Positions 377 to 12,994 of a stretch of DNA of 64,000 nucleotides are shown in pieces (within the stretch, counting starts at the first letter, position 1; each line of letters opens with the position of its first letter). Location of the stretch: positions 202,047 to 266,046 of the forward strand of contig CASFKG010000002.1 of assembly GCA_949295325.1 (NCBI GenBank). The letters run 5' to 3'. The DNA comes from an uncultured bacterium (lineage in GTDB: Bacteria > Bacillota_I > Bacilli_A > RFN20 > CAG-826). The notes below the pieces were generated by a model. It did not search any database. It had not been told where the DNA came from and saw nothing but the letters and a program-made list of their open reading frames with translations. The translations under genes and the position numbers were made by a program.

Positions 377-1924
377 ATGAAAGCACCGAAGAAAGAGAAG
401 AAGGAAACCAAGGCCGAGGAGCTTAAGGCGCCGAAGGCCGAAAAGGCCGAAAAGGCCGCGGAACAGAAACCCGCGGAGGCCGTAGAAGCCAAGAAGGCCG
501 AGGAACCAAAGCCCGAGAAGAAGGCCGATTTGCTATCCGGACCCACGAGCGACAAGGTCACCATCGCCAGCAAGAAGGACATCAAGGCCCGCAAGAAGGC
601 GCTGAAGGAAGAAGAACACGAAATCCCCAAGGATCTCGCCTACGTCAGCCTCCGGCACGTCGACAAGGTCTACGATAACGGCGTCCAGGCCGTCTTCGAC
701 TTCAACCTGGACATACAGAAGAAGGAGTTCATCGTCTTCGTCGGGCCCTCCGGCTGCGGCAAGTCGACCACCCTCCGCATGATCGCGGGTCTCGAAGACA
801 TCACCAACGGCGAACTCTATATCGACGGGGAGTACTCCAACGACCGTACGCCCAAGGACCGCGACATCGCCATGGTCTTCCAAAGCTATGCCTTGTACCC
901 GCACATGACGGTCTACAACAACATGGCCTTCGGCCTCAAGATCCGCCACCTTCCCAAGGCCGAAATCGATAGGCGCGTCCACGAAGCCGCCAAGATCCTC
1001 CAGATCGAGGAATACCTCGACCGCAAGCCCAAGGCCCTCTCCGGCGGCCAGAGGCAGCGTGTCGCCTTGGGCCGCGCCATCGTCCGCAATGCCAAAGTCT
1101 TCTTGATGGACGAACCTCTAAGCAACCTCGACGCGAAGCTCCGCGTCCAGATGAGGTCGGAGATCATCAAACTCACCAAGGCCCTGGGTGCCACCACCAT
1201 CTACGTCACCCACGACCAGACCGAAGCCATGACCATGGCAAGCCGCATCGTCGTCATGAAACTCGGCTACATCCAGCAGATCGGCACCCCGATCGAGATC
1301 TACAACCACCCGGCCAACCTCTTCGTCGCGGGCTTCATCGGCTCGCCGGCCATGAACTTCATCAAGGCCGTCTACAAGGACGGGGTGGTGACCTTCGGCG
1401 ACCACAAAATCAAGCTCCCGAAGGAGTTCGCGGACGCCCACGATGCCTTCTACAACGAGAAGGTCAACGAGGAAAGGGCAGCCATCGACGACCTCATGGA
1501 GAAGGCCAGGCTCGCGGCAACCAAGGAAGATGGAAGCGTGCCCAGCGACGCCGAAATCATCGAGGGTCTCGACGAAGCCACCCACAAGAAGTACGACGAG
1601 CTGACCGCGATGCTTTCCACCGACCTCAAGTCGATCGGCGGCAAGGGCGCGCACGAGGTCATCTTCGGCATCCGTCCGGAAGACATACACGAAGGGGACG
1701 AGGAACACGTCAAGAAGTACGGGGGCGAGCCCTATGGTATCAAGGTCGCCGTTGCCGAACTCCTCGGACACGAGTACTACGTCCATAGCGACTTCGCCGG
1801 CATCGACTTGGTCGCCAAGATCCCGCTTACCCACGAAATCAATATCGGTGACGATATCAAGGTGCTCTTCGACGTCAAGAAGGCCCACATCTTCGATCCG
1901 CAGTCCGAAAAGCGCATCTACTAG
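377..1924 (+). CDS. Carbohydrate ABC transporter ATP-binding protein (MsmK/UgpC/MalK family)
   Basis: Cytoplasmic ATPase that powers sugar-import ABC permeases. Visible motifs: Walker A GPSGCGKS (123-130), Q-loop Q169, signature LSGGQ (221-225), Walker B VFLMDE (241-246) and H-loop H279, then a C-terminal TOBE/OB regulatory domain including GIRPEDI (431-437). At 515 residues it is much longer than the usual ~370: an ~85-residue Lys/Ala/Glu/Pro-rich N-terminal tail precedes the ATPase and a ~75-residue charged helical insert (about 350-425) interrupts the TOBE region. An SD-like GAAAGGA lies just before the ATG. The gene stands alone between a regulatory region (296-325) and a terminator, as expected for a shared ATPase serving several sugar permeases. 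Family call is firm; the sugars are unknown. Confidence 0.9.
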
Positions 1925-1946
1925 ACCAATACCAAATTCCTTTCTA

Positions 1947-1981
1947 GGAGGCCGTCCAAACACGGGCGGCCTCCTCTTTTT
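1947..1981 (+). terminator. Rho-independent terminator of the ABC ATPase gene
   Basis: GGAGGCCGTCC and GGGCGGCCTCC pair (one mismatch) around a short AAACAC loop, followed by TCTTTTT. It begins 22 bases after the stop codon and marks the left edge of the AT-rich island. Confidence 0.85.
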
Positions 1982-2174
1982 ATGCGTAGGCTCTAGAGGG
2001 CGGGGCCACAAAAACACGGCGAACGCCATCCGTCTCGGCGAAAAACCAGCGGCTGCAAATTTAGATCAGATTTTCATAAATAATCGAACGGGCACACAAA
2101 AGTTATTCATCAAAAAGTATTATCAAATAAAATAATCGGTGTTGGTAATTTAATATGGAAAGGAGTCTTTTACC

Positions 2175-2355
2175 ATGAAGTGGGAATATAAATTTGTCTT
2201 TTTCGATTCTGTATTAATTAGCAAAAAAGAAAACAATTAACCTCTTTGACGAAAAATTGAATAGTCTTGGTGACGAAGGCTGGGAATTAGTTAATTTTGC
2301 ACCTGTCTTACTAGATGAAAGATTCGCCTTTATATTCAAGAAGTCAAAAGAATAG
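2175..2355 (+). pseudogene. Small DUF4177-like protein gene interrupted by a +1 frameshift in an A6 run
   Basis: A strong SD (AAGGAG within 2158-2164) precedes ATG 2175. Frame 1 reads MKWEYKFVFFDSVLISKK and stops at 2238-2240. The next frame resumes at once with LNSLGDEGWELVNFAP and ends IFKKSKE at TAG 2353-2355. MKWEYK, LNxLGxEGWELV and a terminal IFK are the hallmarks of the short DUF4177 family. Removing one A from the six-A run at 2223-2228 gives an intact 59-residue protein. So this is a recently broken gene, a homopolymer sequencing error, or a product made by slippage. DUF4177 function is not established. It sits 116 bp before the nuclease-helicase gene on the same strand, in equally AT-rich DNA. 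Confidence 0.7.
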
Positions 2356-2368
2356 ACTGATATTGTTT

Positions 2369-2440
2369 TGAACATCCGTTCATTTTTTGTCTTTGAAAGC
2401 TAAGGAAGTTTGAAGTTTCTACTTTCCACAATGAACATCC
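2369..2440 (+). repeat. Direct repeat TGAACATCC (2369-2377 and 2432-2440)
   Basis: Two 9-bp copies, 63 bp apart, in the gap between the DUF4177-like gene and the nuclease-helicase. They could be binding sites for a regulator of the helicase gene or chance in AT-rich DNA. Confidence 0.25.
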
Positions 2441-2471
2441 ATCTTTAAAATTAACCACTGAGGTATTCTGA

Positions 2472-4373
2472 ATGATTGTCTATCAAGAAACCCTCGGCAC
2501 TTTCGTCGATCAATGCCTAAACGGAACAATCGCAGATTCGGTTAAGAAAGAAATGGAACGACACCACATTGGGGGTGGCGCTTCCAGTGAGTTCCATTCC
2601 TGGGCACATTCCCTCCCCATCCTTGCCGAGAAAGTTTTTTCCGATAGGGACATAGATAGAAATCTGGACGTGGCAATCGAATACAGACTCGTTACCAGCC
2701 GCTCAAGAATCGATTTCATAATCTATGGCCTCAGTCCAGAAGGCGATGATTCCATGGTTTCGATTGAATTGAAGCAGTGGAGTTACGTCCATTCCTCAAA
2801 TTTGCCCAACTATGTTTTGGCCAACACCCATGGAGGCATAATAGAAGACCATTGGCATCCATCTGCCCAAGCCTATAGCTATCAAAGCATTCTTAAGGCC
2901 TTCAACGAGTACGTCTACGATAGGAAAGTCGAACTTGAATCCTGTGCTTATTGTCACGAAATGTCCTCGGCGTATGCGTTTCTCATGAAGGACGAGAACA
3001 AATTCCCGGTCCTCCATTATTCGCCGGTTTTTCTCCAGGGTGACGAAGACAAACTAGCCTCTTTCATAAAGAAATACGTAAGAAGTCCAAAGAAACAACT
3101 GCTTTACGAAATAGACGATTCCAAAGTCAGACCGTCCAAGGAATTTTCCAAGATGTTCCTTTCGGCCATTGCTGGAAACGTTATGCTCACATGCGATGAT
3201 TCCCAGTCATACGCCATATCAAAGGTCGTCGCTGAAGTAAAAGCTTCCGTTAAAGACGGAGTCCGGAGAACGATAATCATAAAAGGCGGTCCCGGAACTG
3301 GAAAATCGGTCGTAGCGATCAATATACTCGGACAATTAATCAATCAGGACAAACATGGGGATGCCGTCAACGCCTGCTACGTTACTCCCAACTACACGCC
3401 CAGCGCGGTATTTCGGAACATACTTATCGATGGCAACTACAAAAAGTCCTCGATAAAGAATCTTTTCAAGAAGATGAACTCCTTCGCCAGATCCTCCTCT
3501 GAGGACTACGACTGCATCATCCTCGACGAAGCCCATCGGGGCTTCAAATGGAAGTTTGGCTCTGGCGTGGGGAAGGACGTCGATTTCATCGACCGCCTTT
3601 TCTATGCTTCCACGGTCAACGTGTTCTTCGTCGATGACGACCAAGTCATCACCAAAAACGACTATCTGACCAGTGACGTTATCAAGAAATACGCCGCTTT
3701 ATACGGTTCTACCATCATCGAAGGCGGAAAGCTTGAACTGACCAGCCAATTCCGGTGCTTGGGTGGGGAAAACTACATTGCCTTCGTAAACTCTCTTCTC
3801 GGTTACGATGACAAAGGCACAATGCTTTTGCCCTCCGGCTACGATTTCCGAGTCTTCGACGATCCCAAGGAAATGTACGAGGAAATAAAGAAGAGGCAAA
3901 AGGATTCCCCCGGCGTCAGCCGCATGGTTGCCGGTTATACACAGGAATGGATCAGCCAATACAACGATTACGATAGGGAGGATGACTATGACATCGTCTA
4001 TCCCCAATTCGACTTTAAGATTAAGTGGAACAAGTGGCATAGGGAACTATCCGATTCCACCCCTTTCATCGAAGACAAAACGCAGGATGACCGGGCCGGA
4101 TGCGTCCATACTGTCCAAGGCGTCGATCTATCTTATTGCGGGGTAATCATCGGCAAAGACCTGCGGTACGAAGATGGACGCTTGTTATTCGATAAGACGC
4201 AGAACGCAAAGTCCGACCATTCTTCCGGCATAAGAACGGCAGATGATGCTCTGGCCGAGAGGATGATTCGCAATAGCTACAAGGTATTGCTCACCAGGGG
4301 AATCCAGGGCACCTATGTCTTTTGCGAAGACAAGGCTTTGACTGAATACATCAAATCAAGAATCGCAAATTAA
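2472..4373 (+). CDS. Nuclease-helicase fusion: PD-(D/E)XK-like N-terminus plus DUF2075 P-loop helicase
   Basis: Predicted cytoplasmic nucleic-acid processing enzyme of 633 residues. The N-terminal third carries a PD-(D/E)XK-like signature: D81 in RIDFIIYG, then E99-L-K101 on the next strand (IELK). The rest is an SF1-like DUF2075 ATPase: Walker A GGPGTGKS (272-279), Walker B IILDEAH (349-355), FVDDDQ (386-391), QFRC (426-429), HTVQGVD (546-552) and VLLTRG (605-610), which correspond to helicase motifs I to VI. A weak SD (GAGG) precedes the ATG. Base composition is clearly more AT-rich than the housekeeping genes, suggesting acquisition. DUF2075 proteins are frequent in accessory regions and are suspected defence proteins; that role is inference here. 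It could instead act in repair. Confidence 0.8.
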   Translation: MIVYQETLGTFVDQCLNGTIADSVKKEMERHHIGGGASSEFHSWAHSLPILAEKVFSDRDIDRNLDVAIEYRLVTSRSRIDFIIYGLSPEGDDSMVSIELKQWSYVHSSNLPNYVLANTHGGIIEDHWHPSAQAYSYQSILKAFNEYVYDRKVELESCAYCHEMSSAYAFLMKDENKFPVLHYSPVFLQGDEDKLASFIKKYVRSPKKQLLYEIDDSKVRPSKEFSKMFLSAIAGNVMLTCDDSQSYAISKVVAEVKASVKDGVRRTIIIKGGPGTGKSVVAINILGQLINQDKHGDAVNACYVTPNYTPSAVFRNILIDGNYKKSSIKNLFKKMNSFARSSSEDYDCIILDEAHRGFKWKFGSGVGKDVDFIDRLFYASTVNVFFVDDDQVITKNDYLTSDVIKKYAALYGSTIIEGGKLELTSQFRCLGGENYIAFVNSLLGYDDKGTMLLPSGYDFRVFDDPKEMYEEIKKRQKDSPGVSRMVAGYTQEWISQYNDYDREDDYDIVYPQFDFKIKWNKWHRELSDSTPFIEDKTQDDRAGCVHTVQGVDLSYCGVIIGKDLRYEDGRLLFDKTQNAKSDHSSGIRTADDALAERMIRNSYKVLLTRGIQGTYVFCEDKALTEYIKSRIAN

Positions 4374-4401
4374 TATCGAATTAGCCTAACGTGCGTTAGA
4401 C

Positions 4402-4434
4402 GATAAGGCAGGCCGGAAGCCTGCCTTATCTTTT
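4402..4434 (+). terminator. Strong rho-independent terminator after the nuclease-helicase
   Basis: A perfect 12-bp stem (GATAAGGCAGGC with GCCTGCCTTATC) and 5-base loop CGGAA, followed by TTTT. It lies 28 bases after the helicase stop and closes the island. Confidence 0.9.
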
Positions 4435-4442
4435 GCTATCGG

Positions 4443-4643
4443 TCAATTAATCAGCAACGTGCTAACCGAATCGTATATTCTCGCCTTCGCGGTATCGACC
4501 TTCACGTAGATGGCATCGTCCATAAGCACGGGCTTCGAAGCGTCGATCCTCGCGACTACCTCGGTCTTCCCGATATCGAAATGGATGATGTACTCGCGCC
4601 CCAATAGTTCCGGGGCCTTGCCTTGGCGAAAAGAGGCTTTTCG
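4443..4643 (-). pseudogene. Orphan C-terminal TOBE-domain remnant of a sugar ABC ATPase
   Basis: Read on the minus strand, this frame gives APELLGREYIIHFDIG, then a VVARIDAS segment and IYVKVDTAKARIYDS, ending in TGA at 4445-4443. It aligns with the C-terminal regulatory domain of the intact MsmK-like ATPase at 377-1924 ([16 protein letters not shown], then [15 protein letters not shown]). There is an in-frame TAG immediately upstream (4646-4644), no plausible start and no ATPase core. It therefore looks like the 3' stump of a deleted gene. Its position at the right edge of the AT-rich nuclease-helicase block suggests that the rearrangement which brought in the island removed the rest. Confidence 0.7.
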
Positions 4644-6605: not shown

Positions 6606-6937
6606 ATGCCTTGGCTTTTGCCTATGTATATGCTGCGAAAGCCGGCTGTTGCCGGGTATTTCCCGCCTTTTTCCTAGATGACTTAGGGGGTTGTCTTTTG
6701 CTACCCCATTTTCTGGTTTTTGCTTTCAAAGCACTTCTATGTTTGGACTGGCATGGCACTTATGCCTGCCGGCAATTCCCTTTCCGCATAAAGCGCCTGA
6801 TTAGCGGCATTTTGAAGACGAATTGTAAATTCTCTTCGCGGAAACGGGCGAAAAACCGCACATAACGCGGTGGATTCGCGGTTTTGGCAATCAAGTCACT
6901 ACACCTATGCGGGCGCGTGGCGTATAGTCTCGGCGTC
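6606..6937. other. Gene-free divergent region between endonuclease I and the secreted-protein operon
   Basis: About 330 bp with no convincing gene; the open frame at 6596-6865 lacks coding character and homology. It holds an AAAACCGC/GCGGTTTT hairpin (6852-6885, long loop) and the two outward near-leaderless promoters (6596-6601 minus and 6923-6928 plus). Nothing else was seen. Confidence 0.5.
6923..6928 (+). promoter_or_regulatory. -10 element (TATAGT) for the secreted-protein operon
   Basis: TATAGT ends nine bases before ATG 6938 and 45 bases before the alternative ATG 6974. No TTGACA-like -35 is evident. Confidence 0.4.
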
Positions 6938-7603
6938 ATGGTGAGAAGAAGCGCAAGAAGGAGTCAAAGTGTCATGGTCAAGGCCATCGGCTTTCTTCTT
7001 TTGCTTTCCGCCTGCAGTCTTTCCGGCATCGCCTTCTCGGCCTGGCAGATAGGGGAGGAGGCCAATGCTCCGGCCGGCCAATTGGAAATAGGGGTTGGCG
7101 ACGTTTTCGAAGTTGATCGTTTTGGTAAGGTAAACTCGATTATCACGCTTCCAGTATGCGAAGATGGTTTTATTGATGATGGCTTGCTTGTTTACGACTT
7201 CCGAGTCGAGATATCCATATTGCTTGAAATCAATGAAATGCGTGATTACCTGGGGATATCATCCACTGATCGGTTCAATATCACCTGTTTATTCAAGATG
7301 TCGTTTATAAATCCAGGATCCCTTCTGTTGCCGACGGGTCTGTCTGCTCCCATGCCAGGCATTTTCCAATTTGACAATGATTCGTCTAAATTGGATTCGC
7401 AATCTGGTTCATGCATGCTTACATTCAGTGGTACCTCTGGTGCCATCGAAGCGAATGTCAGGCTTTTGGCTTCTTTTACCGTCGATTCTTCTTATTCCAG
7501 CAAAGACTCTTTCGAACCGGTTTATCAAGCATTCAAATCAAATCCGGCGGAATTTACCTGTTCCTTAGACATTGTTCTTGCAAAGGATGGTGAAGCAGTG
7601 TGA
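6938..7603 (+). CDS. Secreted protein of unknown function, first gene of a two-gene exported pair
   Basis: No family recognised. The N-terminus is a signal peptide: basic region, hydrophobic core (GFLLLL...), then IAFSAWQIGEE at the presumed cleavage area. The remaining ~170 residues are rich in Ser, Ile, Phe and Val with few charges and look like a small all-beta exported domain. Two starts compete. ATG 6938 has a TATAGT nine bases upstream (near-leaderless). ATG 6974 has a well-spaced SD (AAGGAG, 6958-6963) and gives a 209-residue protein. The stop overlaps the GTG start of the next gene (GTGA), implying coupled translation and a joint role. The SA-W-x-I junction recurs in that partner. DNA is AT-rich relative to the genome. 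Confidence 0.6.
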   Translation: MVRRSARRSQSVMVKAIGFLLLLSACSLSGIAFSAWQIGEEANAPAGQLEIGVGDVFEVDRFGKVNSIITLPVCEDGFIDDGLLVYDFRVEISILLEINEMRDYLGISSTDRFNITCLFKMSFINPGSLLLPTGLSAPMPGIFQFDNDSSKLDSQSGSCMLTFSGTSGAIEANVRLLASFTVDSSYSSKDSFEPVYQAFKSNPAEFTCSLDIVLAKDGEAV

Positions 7604-10008
7604 AACCTTCGACTTTGTCTCGTCTTTTATTTGGCTGTTTCATTATCATTGCGATGACTTTTGTTCCCGCCAGTGCATCATGGAAAATAGTTGGAACTTC
7701 CTATGGTGCCGAGGTACCTTCCACCAGTGACAAAGCCGTCGCCTACATTTCTTCCACCCATCAGTATTTCACAACGATTGAAAGCGCAGTTACTGCCGCT
7801 AATAAATTGGCTAACGCTTCTAACCCGCAAACTGTCTATGTGATACCAGATATAAGTAGCATTCAAAACATGAATGGCACTTATGTCCGGCGACCAATAG
7901 AAATTAAACATGATTTCACCGTCGGAGATTATGTTACCCTCGCTTTGCCTTATTCTGGAGAAACCACTTCGGAGAATCCCGGAAATTTCGGAACCGATTT
8001 TTCCGATTCAAACCAAAGTTTAGAAGCAACTAAATTAAAAACAGAGGTCTTGCTTGGGAACATAGAGGAAGGGGAAGAAACGGGTCGCGGTGTAGTAATG
8101 ACTATAGAACCTGAGGGAAAATTGATCGTCGGTGGACAGATCGGTACCCAAACTTTGACCGCCGGTCAAGGCATGACCACCGGTCTATATTCGCAAATCA
8201 CGCTCGCAAGCGCCGACTATGATCTTGCCGCTGGAAAAGGATTGCCAATCAACGAACTCAGTGGAGCAAGCATAGTATCATATGGGGATGTCGTTTGTTA
8301 CGGATACATAAAGCCCGAAGCTGAGGACCAGGCCGATGACGGAGGTTCCTCTTTTCGGATGTTCGGCGGTAATTTGGAAATGCCTCTTGCTGTTTATGAT
8401 TTTCCAGGAGGAAATGCAACTGCCGGTATGTACTACGGAAGCGCTGTAAAGGCCATGTTTGCGACACAGGGTTACATATTTCCGCTAAATGTCTTTGATT
8501 TTCCCAATATAAGCTGCCCTTCGTTTATTCATTACGGTGCCAGCGTAAATGTGAATGTTTCTCTTTGGATAAACACGGCCGGCAAAATGGTTTCGTCCAT
8601 AGTCCCATTAATCAGTTCCGGAGGAAGCGGCATTTTCAACATGAATTCATCGAATTCGTATTTGAAATATGATTACAACCCACATACCTGCATAAATGGA
8701 AGGGGATATACCAAAAGCGATAGGGCAACAGCCTCGACGGCAGCATCGCCAACAAAAATTGATATATATGGTGGTGCCAACCTATCCAATATTTCGGTTA
8801 ACAATATCGATTTGCCAATCGTTGGCGTCCGCACTTTGTCCACCCAAGGCATATTCATGCCATTTTCGTATAAATTCGATATAAATCTTGTTACTGGCAA
8901 TTACCGCTTCCCGGTACTAAGCAAATTCCTTCCGGGCTGCAGTGTTCGCATAGAAAAAGACGCCGCAGTTACGCTTTTCGGAGATACGATTTTTTATCCC
9001 AATGGATTGTCTGCATATATCAATGGAGGCTATGCCTATCCGAAAAATTTACCTGCTGCGAAGTTTGTAAACAACGGACGCCTTTATGTTGGGGCGTCTT
9101 TTGGGGGATATGTCGAGACCGAAGCGGAGGGTGCGGTCATATCCTTCATGGGCAATTACTGGTCTGCCAGTTCTCTAGATGCTTCCGGTAATGTTGATTT
9201 GGATTCAAATATTATGAATAACATATCTACTGGAACAACTTCAAGAAACGCTACGGCCGATATCATTTCCAATGCTTCTTTTTCGGAAAACCACAATTTG
9301 TCAGAAGTAGGAAATTATGTTTTTGTTTCTGAGATGTATGACGATGGAAGATTTGGATTCCGGGGAACCAATGCTTTCGATGTTTCGATTTCCCGCGAGC
9401 CTTGGCTTGATGGAACTACCGATAGGACTACCACGTACGAGATATACCATAACGGCGTTAAGGTAAATGGCATGGACATAACACTCAAAGTGAGCATTGG
9501 GGATACCATTGAATTTAGAAATATCAGCAATGCCGCATATATAGAAAGCGGAACGGATCTAATTGATACTAGAGCGGGTGGCAGCAAAACATTTACCATC
9601 AGCACCGGTGCCAACTTCTATGTCGTTCCCCCTAGTCTTCTTAACGGCGACAATAGATTCGTTATCAATATCGCAAACACTAGAACAAAGCCTGCTTTTT
9701 GGGGCGACAACGATGTAGATATTTCTATTTCAGCTGATTCGCCGGGAGCTTCGACTGTTAATGTTACGGTCGAGGATATGGACGGGAGTGGCGAAAATGC
9801 AGTTGTCCATTCTGAAAGCGTCGATTACGGCTTTGGCATATTAAGGGTTGGCGATTTAATTAGGCTTTATGGCTTGAAAACCGGTCAGGGATGGCGGGGA
9901 AAAGAAACGGTAATTGATGGTGTTACTGTTGACGATGACTATTACACATTCACGTTTACAAAGGAATACTATGGTTCCGCTATTTCGGTTGTTTGCCAAT
10001 TGTCCTAA
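7600..10008 (+). CDS. Large secreted repetitive beta-rich protein (possible adhesin or surface beta-helix)
   Basis: 802-residue exported protein. Signal peptide with hydrophobic core FGCFIIIAMTF and junction ASASWKIVG. The segment at about 45-85 (AYISSTHQYFTTIESAVTAA, then a TVYVIPDI strand) resembles the opening of parallel beta-helix surface proteins. The rest is Gly/Asn/Ser/Thr-rich with many short beta-type runs and few Lys. No LPXTG, C-terminal membrane anchor or catalytic motif was seen, so it is probably released or held by another partner. It starts at GTG 7600 overlapping the upstream stop, so it is translationally coupled to the small secreted protein. AT-rich composition and the absence of a known family suggest a fast-evolving or acquired host- or surface-interaction module. 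Function unknown. Confidence 0.65.
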   Translation: MKPSTLSRLLFGCFIIIAMTFVPASASWKIVGTSYGAEVPSTSDKAVAYISSTHQYFTTIESAVTAANKLANASNPQTVYVIPDISSIQNMNGTYVRRPIEIKHDFTVGDYVTLALPYSGETTSENPGNFGTDFSDSNQSLEATKLKTEVLLGNIEEGEETGRGVVMTIEPEGKLIVGGQIGTQTLTAGQGMTTGLYSQITLASADYDLAAGKGLPINELSGASIVSYGDVVCYGYIKPEAEDQADDGGSSFRMFGGNLEMPLAVYDFPGGNATAGMYYGSAVKAMFATQGYIFPLNVFDFPNISCPSFIHYGASVNVNVSLWINTAGKMVSSIVPLISSGGSGIFNMNSSNSYLKYDYNPHTCINGRGYTKSDRATASTAASPTKIDIYGGANLSNISVNNIDLPIVGVRTLSTQGIFMPFSYKFDINLVTGNYRFPVLSKFLPGCSVRIEKDAAVTLFGDTIFYPNGLSAYINGGYAYPKNLPAAKFVNNGRLYVGASFGGYVETEAEGAVISFMGNYWSASSLDASGNVDLDSNIMNNISTGTTSRNATADIISNASFSENHNLSEVGNYVFVSEMYDDGRFGFRGTNAFDVSISREPWLDGTTDRTTTYEIYHNGVKVNGMDITLKVSIGDTIEFRNISNAAYIESGTDLIDTRAGGSKTFTISTGANFYVVPPSLLNGDNRFVINIANTRTKPAFWGDNDVDISISADSPGASTVNVTVEDMDGSGENAVVHSESVDYGFGILRVGDLIRLYGLKTGQGWRGKETVIDGVTVDDDYYTFTFTKEYYGSAISVVCQLS

Positions 10009-10048: not shown

Positions 10049-12994
10049 TTAATTCGTGAAGGAAGTACTGACTAGGCCTAATTTCGCTTTTTCTACTTCC
10101 TCAACATAAGGATTTTGACTCGCTAGGAACTTCAGGCTTTCTTCTTTCTGGCTCCTCAGGGATTGCATATTTTCTTTAAGCGAAGACAGGTACTTGTCCA
10201 TGTTGTCGAGCAAGCCGTCGGCCCTAAGCAGGTATCCTTTCGCCGATTTGGGGATATCCAATGGATATGTGCCCGTTCCAATCAGGTCGAATTCCTTCTC
10301 GCTTAGGGGCGATACGGCTATCTCGAAGCCCCGGTAGTAGGCGAGATGGTCCTTGCGGAGTTCCAAGTTCTTCGTTATTTCGGCAAGTATCTGCGAACGC
10401 TCCTCGCCATTGGGCTTAGGAAGGATCCCGGGCATGTCTTCCGTAACCTCTTTTATCTTCCTTTCGGTATCCTCTATCTTCCCGAGCAGTTCCGGCAATT
10501 CGGCCGAGACTTCCGTCCTCTGCCTCTCGTAGGCATCCTTCGCGTTGCCGGCCCTAAGCAAGGCGGCCTCGGCCTCGGCCTTCTTCTTGACCAAAGGATT
10601 GCCCGCGGCAATCGCCTTGACCTCGGCGTAGTCCAAGACCGCGTCCGCCGCGTCCTTGGCCTTGCGCTGCTCCAGGCTTCCCGAAAGCAGCGAGGCAATT
10701 AGCCTTTGCTTGTTTTCGAGCAGCTGCCACGAATAGGCGTCGAAACTGCCTTCGCTTATATATCTATATATGTATACGCGTTTATTGGCGTTGCCCCTTC
10801 TTATTATCCTTCCTTCCCTCTGGGCCAAATCGCTCGGCCTCCAGGGGACATCGAGATGGTGGAGGGCTATAAGCTTGTTCTGGACGTTGACCCCGATCCC
10901 GAGCTTGAAGGTGGAGCCTATCAGTATCCTGATTTCGCCCTCTTGCATCTTGCGGTATAAATCCGGGTTCTTCGCTATATCGGAGGCGAAGGCTATTTCC
11001 TTGGCGGGGACGCCCCTATCGATCAGATCGTCCCTAAGTTCGTCGTAGACCGAAAAGCCGCTGGGGCGGTGGACCGATATGTCGCAGAATACCAGCTGGG
11101 TAAGCTTTTCGCCGCCTGTCTTTTTGTATATGTCCGCGGCGATATCCGCGCACAAAGCGGCCTTTTTGCTAGGATAATCGCCTTTCTTGACCAGCCTTAG
11201 CGAGAGGGCCGCCTTGCGGCCGTCCCCAGTTATCCGGAGCATGTTGTCGCGCTTATGATCGACCAGTTTCCTTTTGACCCGTTCGGCCCGGTAGGCCAGG
11301 TACTTGACGTAGGTATCGAGGGCCTCGTCCTTCTCTATCTTTATGTCTATGTAGCCGCCTTTTTCCGGCAGCCCTTCCCCTTTCTCCACGGCGTGGAAGG
11401 AGGAGATTTCCGAAAGCAAGCCCGAGAGTTCCGGCAGGTTGACGAAGCCCAGTATCCTCTTGTTTTCCCGGTAGCGGTTGCCGGTCGGGTCTATTTCTAT
11501 TTCCTCGCGGTAGTCCGCGAAGGCCGCCAGCCATTTGGCCGGGCTGCCGAGCCCGAGTTCCAAAAGCCTAGCGCCCTGGAGGTAGACCTGCATGGCGAAG
11601 AGATCCCCTATGGAATTGGAAACCGGGGTCCCGGTGGCGAAAACCACGCCGCCACCGCCGTTCCTATTTTCGATGTAGGCGGATTTTTCCAGCATGCCGC
11701 TTACCTTCCTCGGCGGCCGTTTGCCGCCCATGGAGGCGTTCTTGTAGTTATGGGCCTCGTCCAAAAAGAGGCGGTCTATCCCAAGGTCGGCAAAGCCAAT
11801 TTTCCCGTCCTTGCCGCGCAAGGGCATGAGGTCGAAGGAGGAGTAGGCCATGATGACGGCCTCGGCCTTCGACCGCCTTATTTCCTCCATCGTCTTCTCC
11901 CTCTTCCGGGCTAGGAAATCCCCGGGCTCGACGGCCAGCACTTCGGCCTCCGGATAGCAGCGGGCGTATATTTGCTTCCATTGGCCCAGTATGTTGTTTG
12001 GCACCACGTAGAGGTTCTTACGGCTGCGTCCTAGCCTTATGAGCTCGTGGCCGGCCGCGATCATGACGAAGGTCTTGCCGCTGCCGACGTCGTGGGCCAA
12101 TAGGACGTTCTTGGAATTGAGGATCCGCGATACCGCGTCCTTCTGGTAGCCGTATAGGGTAACGGCCAGGCCCGGCAGTTCAAGATAGCTACCGTCGTAA
12201 TGGCGGGGCAGGTAGGCCCCGAAGGCCTCCTCGTAGCGCGAAAGGGCCCTTTTCCTCGCTTCGGGATGCCTGGCCATGTAGTCCCCGAAGGCCGCTTCGA
12301 TCTTGGCCTGCTTGAGCGAGGCCAGATAGCTGGCCCTAGGATCGAGGCGGCGCTTTCCTTCTACCTTCCGGTAGACCAGGACCTTCTGTCCGTTCAGCGT
12401 TTTCTCGAGTATCGAGAGGGCGCTGATGGCGCTGGTGCCGTAAAGGGTGCGGTTGCGGAAGCGGTCCGCCATTTCCTTTAGGGGTATGCGGTACCTCCCG
12501 GTTTTGGCGTCTCTTACGGTCTTTAGGCCCGGCATGGTCATGAACTCGTCTTTACCGGTGCGGGCGTTATAGGAGACGACCTTCTTACGGTTCACCAGTT
12601 CGTCGATGAAGCCGTCCAATACCGCGGTATCGAGCAAAGGGGATCCGAGCCGGAGCATGATCTCGTTTTCCCCCGGGGCCCTCGGCATCACGGCCTCCAG
12701 GGCCCGGATGTTGGCGTCGAATTGCCCCCCGCCCGGGGGACTTACCGCCCGCGCGGATTTGAGTTTCCTGTCTATCCGGCCGGAGAGGTATTCCTCCGCG
12801 AGGACGTAGCTGTCCTTTGCGGGGGCCGTCCTCAGTTTGTCGGGATCGAGGTAGACGGCGCCCGAAAGCATCGCCACGGTCTCTTCGATCCCCCGCCCGC
12901 AAAGGCGCGAGACGTATTCCATGTCGATCCGGCCGAGGTCGTCTAGGGACCTATGCAGGGCCGTAATCGGTTTAAGCGCTGCCTTGCCCGCCAT
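10049..12994 (-). CDS. Large SNF2-like DEAD/DEAH helicase of the mobile-element (DarB/ICE-associated) type, without methylase domain
   Basis: 981-residue SF2 ATPase. After a ~290-residue N-terminal region come Walker A in AHDVGSGKTF (near residue 300), VVPNNILGQW, LFLDEAHNYKN (near 410), ATGTPVSNS (near 455) and the C-terminal helicase lobe with GIGVNVQN and QREGRIIRRG (near 700-735). The last ~200 residues look coiled-coil. This order and the NLPEL segment match the helicase half of giant methylase-helicase proteins on phages and integrative elements (phage P1 DarB type). No N6-methylase motif (NPPY-like) is present, so this is a stand-alone or trimmed form. ATG 12994 is chosen over TTG 13000 because TACATT lies eight bases upstream. 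Role in DNA protection, defence or repair is inference. Confidence 0.8.
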   Translation of the reverse strand: MAGKAALKPITALHRSLDDLGRIDMEYVSRLCGRGIEETVAMLSGAVYLDPDKLRTAPAKDSYVLAEEYLSGRIDRKLKSARAVSPPGGGQFDANIRALEAVMPRAPGENEIMLRLGSPLLDTAVLDGFIDELVNRKKVVSYNARTGKDEFMTMPGLKTVRDAKTGRYRIPLKEMADRFRNRTLYGTSAISALSILEKTLNGQKVLVYRKVEGKRRLDPRASYLASLKQAKIEAAFGDYMARHPEARKRALSRYEEAFGAYLPRHYDGSYLELPGLAVTLYGYQKDAVSRILNSKNVLLAHDVGSGKTFVMIAAGHELIRLGRSRKNLYVVPNNILGQWKQIYARCYPEAEVLAVEPGDFLARKREKTMEEIRRSKAEAVIMAYSSFDLMPLRGKDGKIGFADLGIDRLFLDEAHNYKNASMGGKRPPRKVSGMLEKSAYIENRNGGGGVVFATGTPVSNSIGDLFAMQVYLQGARLLELGLGSPAKWLAAFADYREEIEIDPTGNRYRENKRILGFVNLPELSGLLSEISSFHAVEKGEGLPEKGGYIDIKIEKDEALDTYVKYLAYRAERVKRKLVDHKRDNMLRITGDGRKAALSLRLVKKGDYPSKKAALCADIAADIYKKTGGEKLTQLVFCDISVHRPSGFSVYDELRDDLIDRGVPAKEIAFASDIAKNPDLYRKMQEGEIRILIGSTFKLGIGVNVQNKLIALHHLDVPWRPSDLAQREGRIIRRGNANKRVYIYRYISEGSFDAYSWQLLENKQRLIASLLSGSLEQRKAKDAADAVLDYAEVKAIAAGNPLVKKKAEAEAALLRAGNAKDAYERQRTEVSAELPELLGKIEDTERKIKEVTEDMPGILPKPNGEERSQILAEITKNLELRKDHLAYYRGFEIAVSPLSEKEFDLIGTGTYPLDIPKSAKGYLLRADGLLDNMDKYLSSLKENMQSLRSQKEESLKFLASQNPYVEEVEKAKLGLVSTSFTN

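What the first reader, a model, noticed from the sequence alone, without database searches (positions are those of the whole stretch)
2158..4434. AT-rich candidate defence module: DUF4177-like small protein plus PD-(D/E)XK/DUF2075 nuclease-helicase
Two genes in one orientation, both markedly AT-rich, are bounded by terminators at 1947-1981 and 4402-4434 and sit beside a decayed ABC ATPase. The large protein joins a nuclease signature (D81, E99-L-K101) to a complete set of SF1-like helicase motifs. The small partner belongs to a family of unknown function. A compact, island-borne nuclease-helicase with a tiny partner is the profile of an anti-phage system.
Basis: partly seen in the sequence, partly recalled or inferred. 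Interest (0 to 1): 0.6.

Follow-up and report, generated by a model that had tools for sequence, protein, structure and literature searches.

The report
Nuclease-helicase gene, partner gene lost

Summary
The large gene (2472-4373) is real, intact and under purifying selection. It encodes a PD-(D/E)XK nuclease fused to an SF1 helicase of the Schlafen-group-3 type (PF09848, formerly DUF2075). The proposed small partner is not a partner. The DUF4177-like gene (2175-2355) is frame-broken in an A6 run, was not found at 80 related loci, and lies next to this helicase in only one other genome searched. The real recurrent partner is a MazG-type pyrophosphohydrolase resembling human dCTP pyrophosphatase 1. 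It is directly adjacent at 53 of 80 loci in bacteria and archaea; a phage and an archaeal plasmid also carry the pair. Genes beside the family's relatives match far more defence models than control genes do. At this locus MazG is absent from the whole assembly, the gene is a lone insertion among housekeeping genes, and a close relative has the site without it. Best reading: a Nhi-like anti-phage nuclease-helicase of a distinct, usually two-gene family, here reduced to one gene. No defence activity has been tested.

The parts
377..1924 (+). Intact MsmX/UgpC-type ABC transporter ATPase, left flank of the insertion
   Evidence: 515-aa ORF, ABC_tran 4.3e-33; 83% identical orthologue at the same place in G029
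1946..1981 (+). Terminator-like hairpin that closes the ABC gene
   Evidence: 12-bp stem plus T-run
2175..2240 (+). 5' part of a frame-broken DUF4177/Sp36-like small gene (21 codons, then TAA)
   Evidence: MKWEYKFVFFDSVLISKKENN*; RBS AAGGAG at about 2159-2164
2223..2228 (+). A6 run at which the reading frame is lost (one A more than the open frame needs)
   Evidence: codon comparison with intact relatives L075-L081
2229..2355 (+). 3' part of the DUF4177-like gene in the +1 frame (..TINLFDEKLNSLGDEGWELVNF..KKSKE*)
2472..4373 (+). Intact nuclease-helicase gene, 633 aa, SLFN-g3/DUF2075 family
   Evidence: PF09848 E 5.3e-78; dS saturated and dN 0.41-0.58 against nearest relatives; AF2 pLDDT 87.8, pTM 0.87
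2472..3086 (+). N-terminal PD-(D/E)XK nuclease domain (residues 1-205); R79-x-D81 (D81 at 2712-2714), E99-L-K101 (2766-2774), H129-P..Q133-A..Y137
   Evidence: residues invariant or at least 90% conserved in 65 sequences; AF2 pLDDT 91.5; Can2 Z 8.4 and a list dominated by PD-(D/E)XK nucleases
3171..4370 (+). SF1 helicase domain (residues 234-633); Walker A GGPGTGKS 272-279 (3285-3308), DEAH 352-355 (3525-3536)
   Evidence: PF09848; UvrD Z 21.4, SLFN11 Z 18.8; RecD, SLFN11 and Dna2 by Foldseek
4402..4434 (+). Terminator-like hairpin behind the nuclease-helicase gene
   Evidence: 12-bp perfect stem, T-run
4443..4604 (-). C-terminal remnant (~54 aa) of a second ABC ATPase of the MsmX type
   Evidence: 38% identity over 48 residues to the end of the 377-1924 protein

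Best explanation
The locus carries one intact gene for a single-chain enzyme: an N-terminal PD-(D/E)XK nuclease fused to a UvrD/Schlafen-like SF1 helicase. It belongs to a widespread, horizontally moving family that usually forms a two-gene unit with a MazG-type pyrophosphohydrolase of the dCTP-pyrophosphatase-1 kind, and that unit most likely serves anti-phage defence. Inferred mechanism: the helicase engages phage replication intermediates (exposed single-stranded DNA, forks or SSB-coated DNA), moves along them with ATP, and the nuclease cuts them; MazG, where present, removes dCTP or other dNTPs so that replication of the invader is starved at the same time. In this genome MazG has been lost or was never kept, so the enzyme would act alone in the manner of Nhi. 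The DUF4177-like gene is a decayed bystander. Shown here: gene integrity, fold, conserved catalytic residues, recurrent MazG partner, defence-rich neighbourhoods of the family, accessory insertion. Inferred: anti-phage function, DNA as target, trigger, role of MazG.
For: Architecture: PF09848 5.3e-78; invariant R79xD81, E99-L-K101 and QAxxY, Walker motifs conserved; AF2 of the whole and of the nuclease domain; PDB matches RecD/SLFN11/Dna2/UvrD and Can2/Cdn1/Card1/restriction enzymes/Shedu/HamA; 31 of 65 N-terminal domains weakly match NERD, others HSDR_N_2. Partner: MazG within 300 nt of the gene at 53 of 80 named loci, often overlapping by 4 nt; same in many relatives; genome co-occurrence OR 9.3, p 7e-8; closest solved structures dCTP pyrophosphatase 1, 3e-22, and a bacterial pyrophosphatase, 1.7e-26; invariant ExxE..ExxD metal motif. 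Defence context: recurrent neighbours are a NUDIX (PADLOC PDC-S07 4e-49), a PLD-DEAD-DUF3427 type IV restriction enzyme (2e-118), a C5 methylase, AbiH, AbiEi, MrcB_N; PADLOC models matched at 1e-25 among 95 neighbours 71, among 95 control genes 9. Mobility: empty site in G029, scattered occurrence in 50 of 145 relatives, tree mixing phyla and archaea, phage and plasmid copies with MazG. The window sits in a clade (support 100) whose other members L032, L033, L034, L035 and L098 have adjacent MazG.
Against: No functional data for any member. The window locus has no MazG in the assembly (95% complete) and lies among housekeeping genes, so this copy could be a non-functional leftover or serve another role. 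PADLOC has no model that covers the family end to end. The PADLOC comparison counts models, not genes, and one gene can match many models. RecD- and Dna2-like folds are equally at home in DNA repair. Nuclease-domain matches are modest (best Z 8.4; Foldseek E 4e-3).
Confidence: 0.6

Rival explanations
1. A DNA repair or genome-maintenance enzyme: a RecD/Dna2-like nuclease-helicase, with MazG as a house-cleaning enzyme that removes damaged dNTPs.
For: Fold matches to RecD, Dna2, UvrD; MazG and NUDIX neighbours also fit sanitation of the nucleotide pool.
Against: Patchy accessory distribution (50 of 145 relatives), empty site in a congener, cross-phylum transfer, and restriction, AbiEi, AbiH and Cas9-type neighbours.
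Confidence: 0.15
2. A decaying leftover: the system lost MazG here and the nuclease-helicase no longer does anything.
For: No MazG in the assembly; neighbouring small gene frame-broken; remnant of an ABC gene beside it; no defence island at this site.
Against: The 633-aa frame and every catalytic residue are intact, with saturated synonymous and limited non-synonymous divergence; MazG-less members are scattered over the tree (23 changes among 93 scored rows), which suggests the helicase can work alone or with a partner elsewhere in the genome.
Confidence: 0.15
3. An RNA-targeting system in the manner of vertebrate Schlafens, stopping translation during infection.
For: The helicase domain is of the Schlafen group, SLFN11 Z 18.8.
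Against: The Schlafen RNase core is the AlbA-type N-terminal domain, and no SLFN_AlbA_2 match was found in this protein; the N-terminus here is PD-(D/E)XK with mostly DNA nucleases as structural neighbours; a dCTP-pyrophosphatase-like partner points to DNA.
Confidence: 0.07
4. The first reader's module: the DUF4177-like protein is a true partner, made by frameshifting or slippage at the A run.
For: A second, unlinked homologue (G139, L082) has a +1 break at the same point, in an A-rich run of eight; a DUF4177-like gene also lies about 340 nt upstream of the helicase, just before MazG, in G090; two adjacencies among 13 genomes with both genes exceed the 0.04 expected by random placement.
Against: None at 80 named loci; most intact DUF4177 homologues lie elsewhere and read through without a shift; genome co-occurrence p 0.07; accessory genes cluster in islands anyway, so random placement is a poor null.
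Confidence: 0.03

Closest known systems
Nhi (nuclease-helicase immunity, Staphylococcus epidermidis; Cell Host Microbe 2022, doi 10.1016/j.chom.2022.03.001, known to me only through PMC10732053)
   Same: Single chain with an N-terminal nuclease and an SF1 helicase. A PADLOC-Nhi protein found here (L238, 470 bits) also has a D..IELK nuclease signature and the same helicase motifs. Reported to be triggered by phage SSB (PMC10732053).
   Different: Nhi is about 470-500 aa against 633. The window protein reaches only 38 bits on the Nhi model, over residues 246-399, and the family profile gives the Nhi exemplar 9.7 bits. This family usually has a MazG partner; none is encoded in the 3.7 kb held around the Nhi exemplar.
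AbiO
   Same: Shares the helicase domain (40.7 bits over residues 246-505)
   Different: Partial match only; most of the N-terminal half, including the nuclease domain, is not covered
Vertebrate Schlafens (SLFN5, 11, 13, 14)
   Same: Helicase domain: Z 18.8 over 282 residues with SLFN11; same Pfam family group
   Different: The N-terminal RNase core is replaced by a PD-(D/E)XK nuclease; about 15% identity
Can2/Card1/Cdn1 CRISPR ancillary nucleases
   Same: Nuclease domain fold (Z 7-8.4)
   Different: No CARF sensor domain was found; a helicase is attached instead
dCTP pyrophosphatase 1 (DCTPP1, RS21-C6) and MazG-like enzymes
   Same: The partner protein matches DCTPP1 at 3e-22 and keeps the ExxE..ExxD metal motif
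   Different: Encoded in an operon with a nuclease-helicase; absent from the window genome. MazG is listed as a predicted but unvalidated defence domain in PMC13092281.

Membership tests
SLFN-g3 helicase (PF09848, ex-DUF2075) | Match over the Pfam gathering score across the whole domain | tested here: met
   263 bits against a cut-off of 24; profile positions 2-354 of 354
PD-(D/E)XK nuclease superfamily | Conserved D..(D/E)xK residues on the core fold | tested here: met
   D81, E99, K101 invariant in 65 sequences; AF2 pLDDT 91.5; structural neighbours mostly PD-(D/E)XK nucleases
PD-(D/E)XK nuclease superfamily | Nuclease activity | not testable with these tools
   Needs purified protein
Nhi | Nuclease plus SF1 helicase in one chain | tested here: met
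Nhi | Full-length match to the PADLOC Nhi model (as L238 has: 470 bits) | tested here: not met
   38.4 bits, residues 246-399 only
Nhi | Anti-phage activity as a single gene | not testable with these tools
   No phage assay available
AbiO | Full-length match to the PADLOC AbiO model | tested here: not met
   40.7 bits, profile 176-397 of 468
MazG plus nuclease-helicase pair (the family described here) | Nuclease-helicase protein within the family tree | tested here: met
   Clade with support 100
MazG plus nuclease-helicase pair (the family described here) | Adjacent MazG-like gene | tested here: not met
   No MazG in the window genome; adjacent at 53 of 80 named loci
DUF4177/Sp36 small-protein partner module | Intact small ORF that recurs beside the helicase | tested here: not met
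   Frame-broken; none at 80 named loci
Defence island | Other defence genes nearby | tested here: not met
   At the window: no clear defence gene among 44 others. At family level: met

The most novel reading that the evidence does not exclude
An uncharacterised two-gene defence system, spread over bacteria and archaea, that joins a dCTP-pyrophosphatase-like MazG with a Schlafen-helicase/PD-(D/E)XK nuclease: one subunit starves replication of dNTPs while the other attacks replicating foreign DNA, sometimes within a four-gene cluster that adds a NUDIX hydrolase and a PLD-helicase restriction enzyme.
Probability: 0.4. Interest if true: 0.65.

Novelty: new variant of a known kind. Interest (0 to 1): 0.42.

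Why it matters
If true, a large family of proteins annotated only as 'DUF2075' and 'nucleotide pyrophosphohydrolase' is a defence system that couples removal of nucleotides with attack on DNA. It would link the helicase half of vertebrate Schlafens to bacterial immunity through a different nuclease. The finding turns an unexplained gene pair into a direct test: does each half protect alone, and does MazG set the sensitivity of the nuclease-helicase? The window locus would be a natural single-gene case.

Tried and rejected
1) DUF4177-like gene as partner: rejected. 2) First genome-contig scan with the single protein found no relative because its patterns were too specific; the alignment-based scan succeeded. 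3) Viral contigs: no relative found; annotated phage records gave four, one of them with MazG. 4) Literature: none of the papers held combine DUF2075 with MazG or with phage defence; the Nhi paper itself was not found in the library, so Nhi facts come from PMC10732053. The Schlafen nucleases of PMC12839542 are RNases linked to a histidine-kinase domain, a different architecture. 5) PDB profile search with the nuclease domain alone: no sequence match. 7) Relics of MazG in the window: none seen by eye in the 98-nt gap before or the 69 nt behind the helicase gene, and no genome match. 8) A conserved DNA element around the insert: no long repeats and only weak matches of the upstream gap outside the DUF4177-like part.

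Full report
WHAT IS IN THE SEQUENCE. The large ORF at 2472-4373 is intact (633 aa). Pfam gives PF09848, Schlafen group 3 helicase, formerly DUF2075, at 5.3e-78 over the whole profile. D81, E99-L-K101 and most of the SF1 motif residues are invariant in alignments of 37 and 65 relatives, together with R79 and Y137; E70 and Q133-A are at least 90% conserved. Against its three nearest relatives synonymous change is saturated or nearly so while dN is 0.41-0.58, so the protein has been under purifying selection. The terminator-like hairpins at 1946-1981 and 4402-4434 are there and the region is AT-rich against its surroundings.

THE SMALL GENE IS BROKEN. An RBS and ATG at 2175 begin a DUF4177-like frame that stops after 21 codons. 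The rest of the domain follows in the +1 frame and ends at 2355; one A too many in the A6 run 2223-2228 would account for it. The joined reading matches PF13783 at 2.6e-6 and is 54-66% identical to intact genes in several congeners, which need no frameshift. A homologue in G139 (L082) has a break at the same point, which could mean a slippage site, a mutation hot spot or a homopolymer assembly error; the data do not decide. Whatever the cause, DUF4177-like genes are not linked to this helicase: none at 80 named loci, adjacent only here and in G090, and genome co-occurrence gives p 0.07.

THE REAL PARTNER. Unsupervised clustering of neighbours showed one dominant family, found at 23 of the relatives' loci: a ~106-aa protein directly beside the helicase gene, commonly overlapping it by 4 nt. 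It is MazG-like (PF12643 7e-16). Its closest solved structures are a bacterial pyrophosphatase (1.7e-26) and dCTP pyrophosphatase 1 (3e-22), and it keeps the ExxE..ExxD metal motif. A profile search found it within 300 nt at 53 of 80 loci from Bacillota, Bacteroidota, Spirochaetota, Pseudomonadota, Verrucomicrobiota and a Saccharibacterium. Independent annotation agrees: the archaeal plasmid NC_014298 lists 'nucleotide pyrophosphohydrolase' followed by 'DUF2075', and Microcystis phage Mwe-JY31 has the same pair. Among 145 relatives, helicase and MazG co-occur with OR 9.3, p 7e-8 (genomes are related, so the p-value is nominal).

WHERE THE WINDOW STANDS. The window protein sits in a divergent clade with support 100. 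Five other lineages of that clade (L032, L033, L034, L035, L098) have MazG beside the gene, upstream or downstream; G107 (L031) does not, but has one elsewhere. The window genome has none. Over the tree adjacency changes at least 23 times among 93 scored rows, so loss and gain of the neighbour are common. In congener G029 the same ABC ATPase, alcohol dehydrogenase and endonuclease genes stand in the same order with about 550 bp of unrelated DNA between the first two, where the window has about 2.75 kb. The module is therefore an accessory insertion, or was lost in G029. The rest of the window is housekeeping, and a PADLOC scan of 44 other window genes gave only four model matches, probably generic (a helicase, DnaG primase and the ABC ATPase among them).

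STRUCTURE. AlphaFold2 gave a confident model (pLDDT 87.8, pTM 0.87). The helicase half matches UvrD (Z 21.4), SLFN11 (Z 18.8, 282 residues, 3.8 A) and RecD/Dna2. The N-terminal 212 residues folded alone (pLDDT 91.5) match Can2 (Z 8.4, 140 residues, 4.0 A), Cdn1, Card1, many restriction enzymes, Shedu and HamA. Z near 8 is modest, but the list is dominated by PD-(D/E)XK enzymes, and by sequence 31 of 65 domains weakly match NERD, a nuclease family. Together with the invariant residues this makes a nuclease domain very likely; activity is untested.

DEFENCE CONTEXT. The next most common neighbours are a NUDIX hydrolase (11 loci; PADLOC PDC-S07), a PLD-DEAD-DUF3427 protein of the type IV restriction kind (10 loci), C5 methylases, HNH and AbiH proteins. 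Among 95 neighbour genes in relatives 71 PADLOC models were matched at 1e-25, including Cas9, BrxL, HsdR, AbiEi and AbiLi, against 9 models among 95 control genes from the same set of genomes. This counts models and not genes, so it is indicative rather than a clean ratio.

KNOWN RELATIVES AND NOVELTY. The window protein is not Nhi by model score (38 bits against 470 for the one Nhi found in 147 genomes of the order), but the two share an architecture, and a D..IELK signature is visible in the Nhi exemplar. It therefore works like Nhi, as far as anatomy tells, without being one. No paper found in the library describes the MazG pair; MazG is named as a predicted, unvalidated defence domain in PMC13092281. 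Only part of the literature is held, so 'not described' is not shown. I rate it a new variant of a known kind.

MECHANISM. Shown: gene integrity, fold, conserved catalytic residues, partner, context, mobility. Inferred: the helicase loads on replication intermediates of an invader, the nuclease cuts them, and MazG lowers dCTP or other dNTPs. Phage SSB triggers Nhi and several other systems (PMC10732053), so an SSB- or ssDNA-linked trigger is a reasonable guess here. The window copy would act alone, or may be on its way out.

Noticed in passing
L116:939-6409, also L100, L104, L114, L118, L141, L163: A recurrent larger cluster: PLD-DEAD-DUF3427 restriction-like helicase plus NUDIX (PADLOC PDC-S07) near MazG and the nuclease-helicase, at about 10 of 80 loci. 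Possibly a four-gene system.
   Followed up: partly
L082:1458-1632 (G139:C68): An unlinked DUF4177-like gene with a +1 frame break at the same position as in the window, in an A-rich run of eight. Slippage, hot spot or assembly error undecided.
   Followed up: partly
L089:455-523 (G000:C2, own genome): A second, truncated DUF4177-like start near a contig end in the window's own genome.
   Followed up: no
L048:8255-8440 and 11816-12001 (G090): Two DUF4177-like genes flank an intact MazG plus nuclease-helicase pair; this is the only other adjacency seen.
   Followed up: partly
L064:7780-9850 (G027): A much more distant Schlafen-type helicase (582 aa) is also directly followed by a MazG gene, so the partnership reaches beyond this subfamily.
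   Followed up: no
L146, L149, L152: Pseudomonadota members are about 815-830 aa, some 190 aa longer than the rest; the nature of the extra part was not examined.
   Followed up: no
L237:384-8487 (Hymenobacter plasmid NZ_CP114769): Two DUF2075 genes in tandem behind a DNA methyltransferase, a DUF4747 protein and a BPTD_3080 restriction endonuclease.
   Followed up: no
window 377-1924: The ABC ATPase has an unusual charged Lys/Glu/Ala-rich N-terminal extension of about 90 residues before the ATPase domain.
   Followed up: no
window 6884-10008: A second low-GC stretch (about 44%) with a large probably secreted protein; G029 has a weakly similar counterpart at the same place (L228).
   Followed up: no
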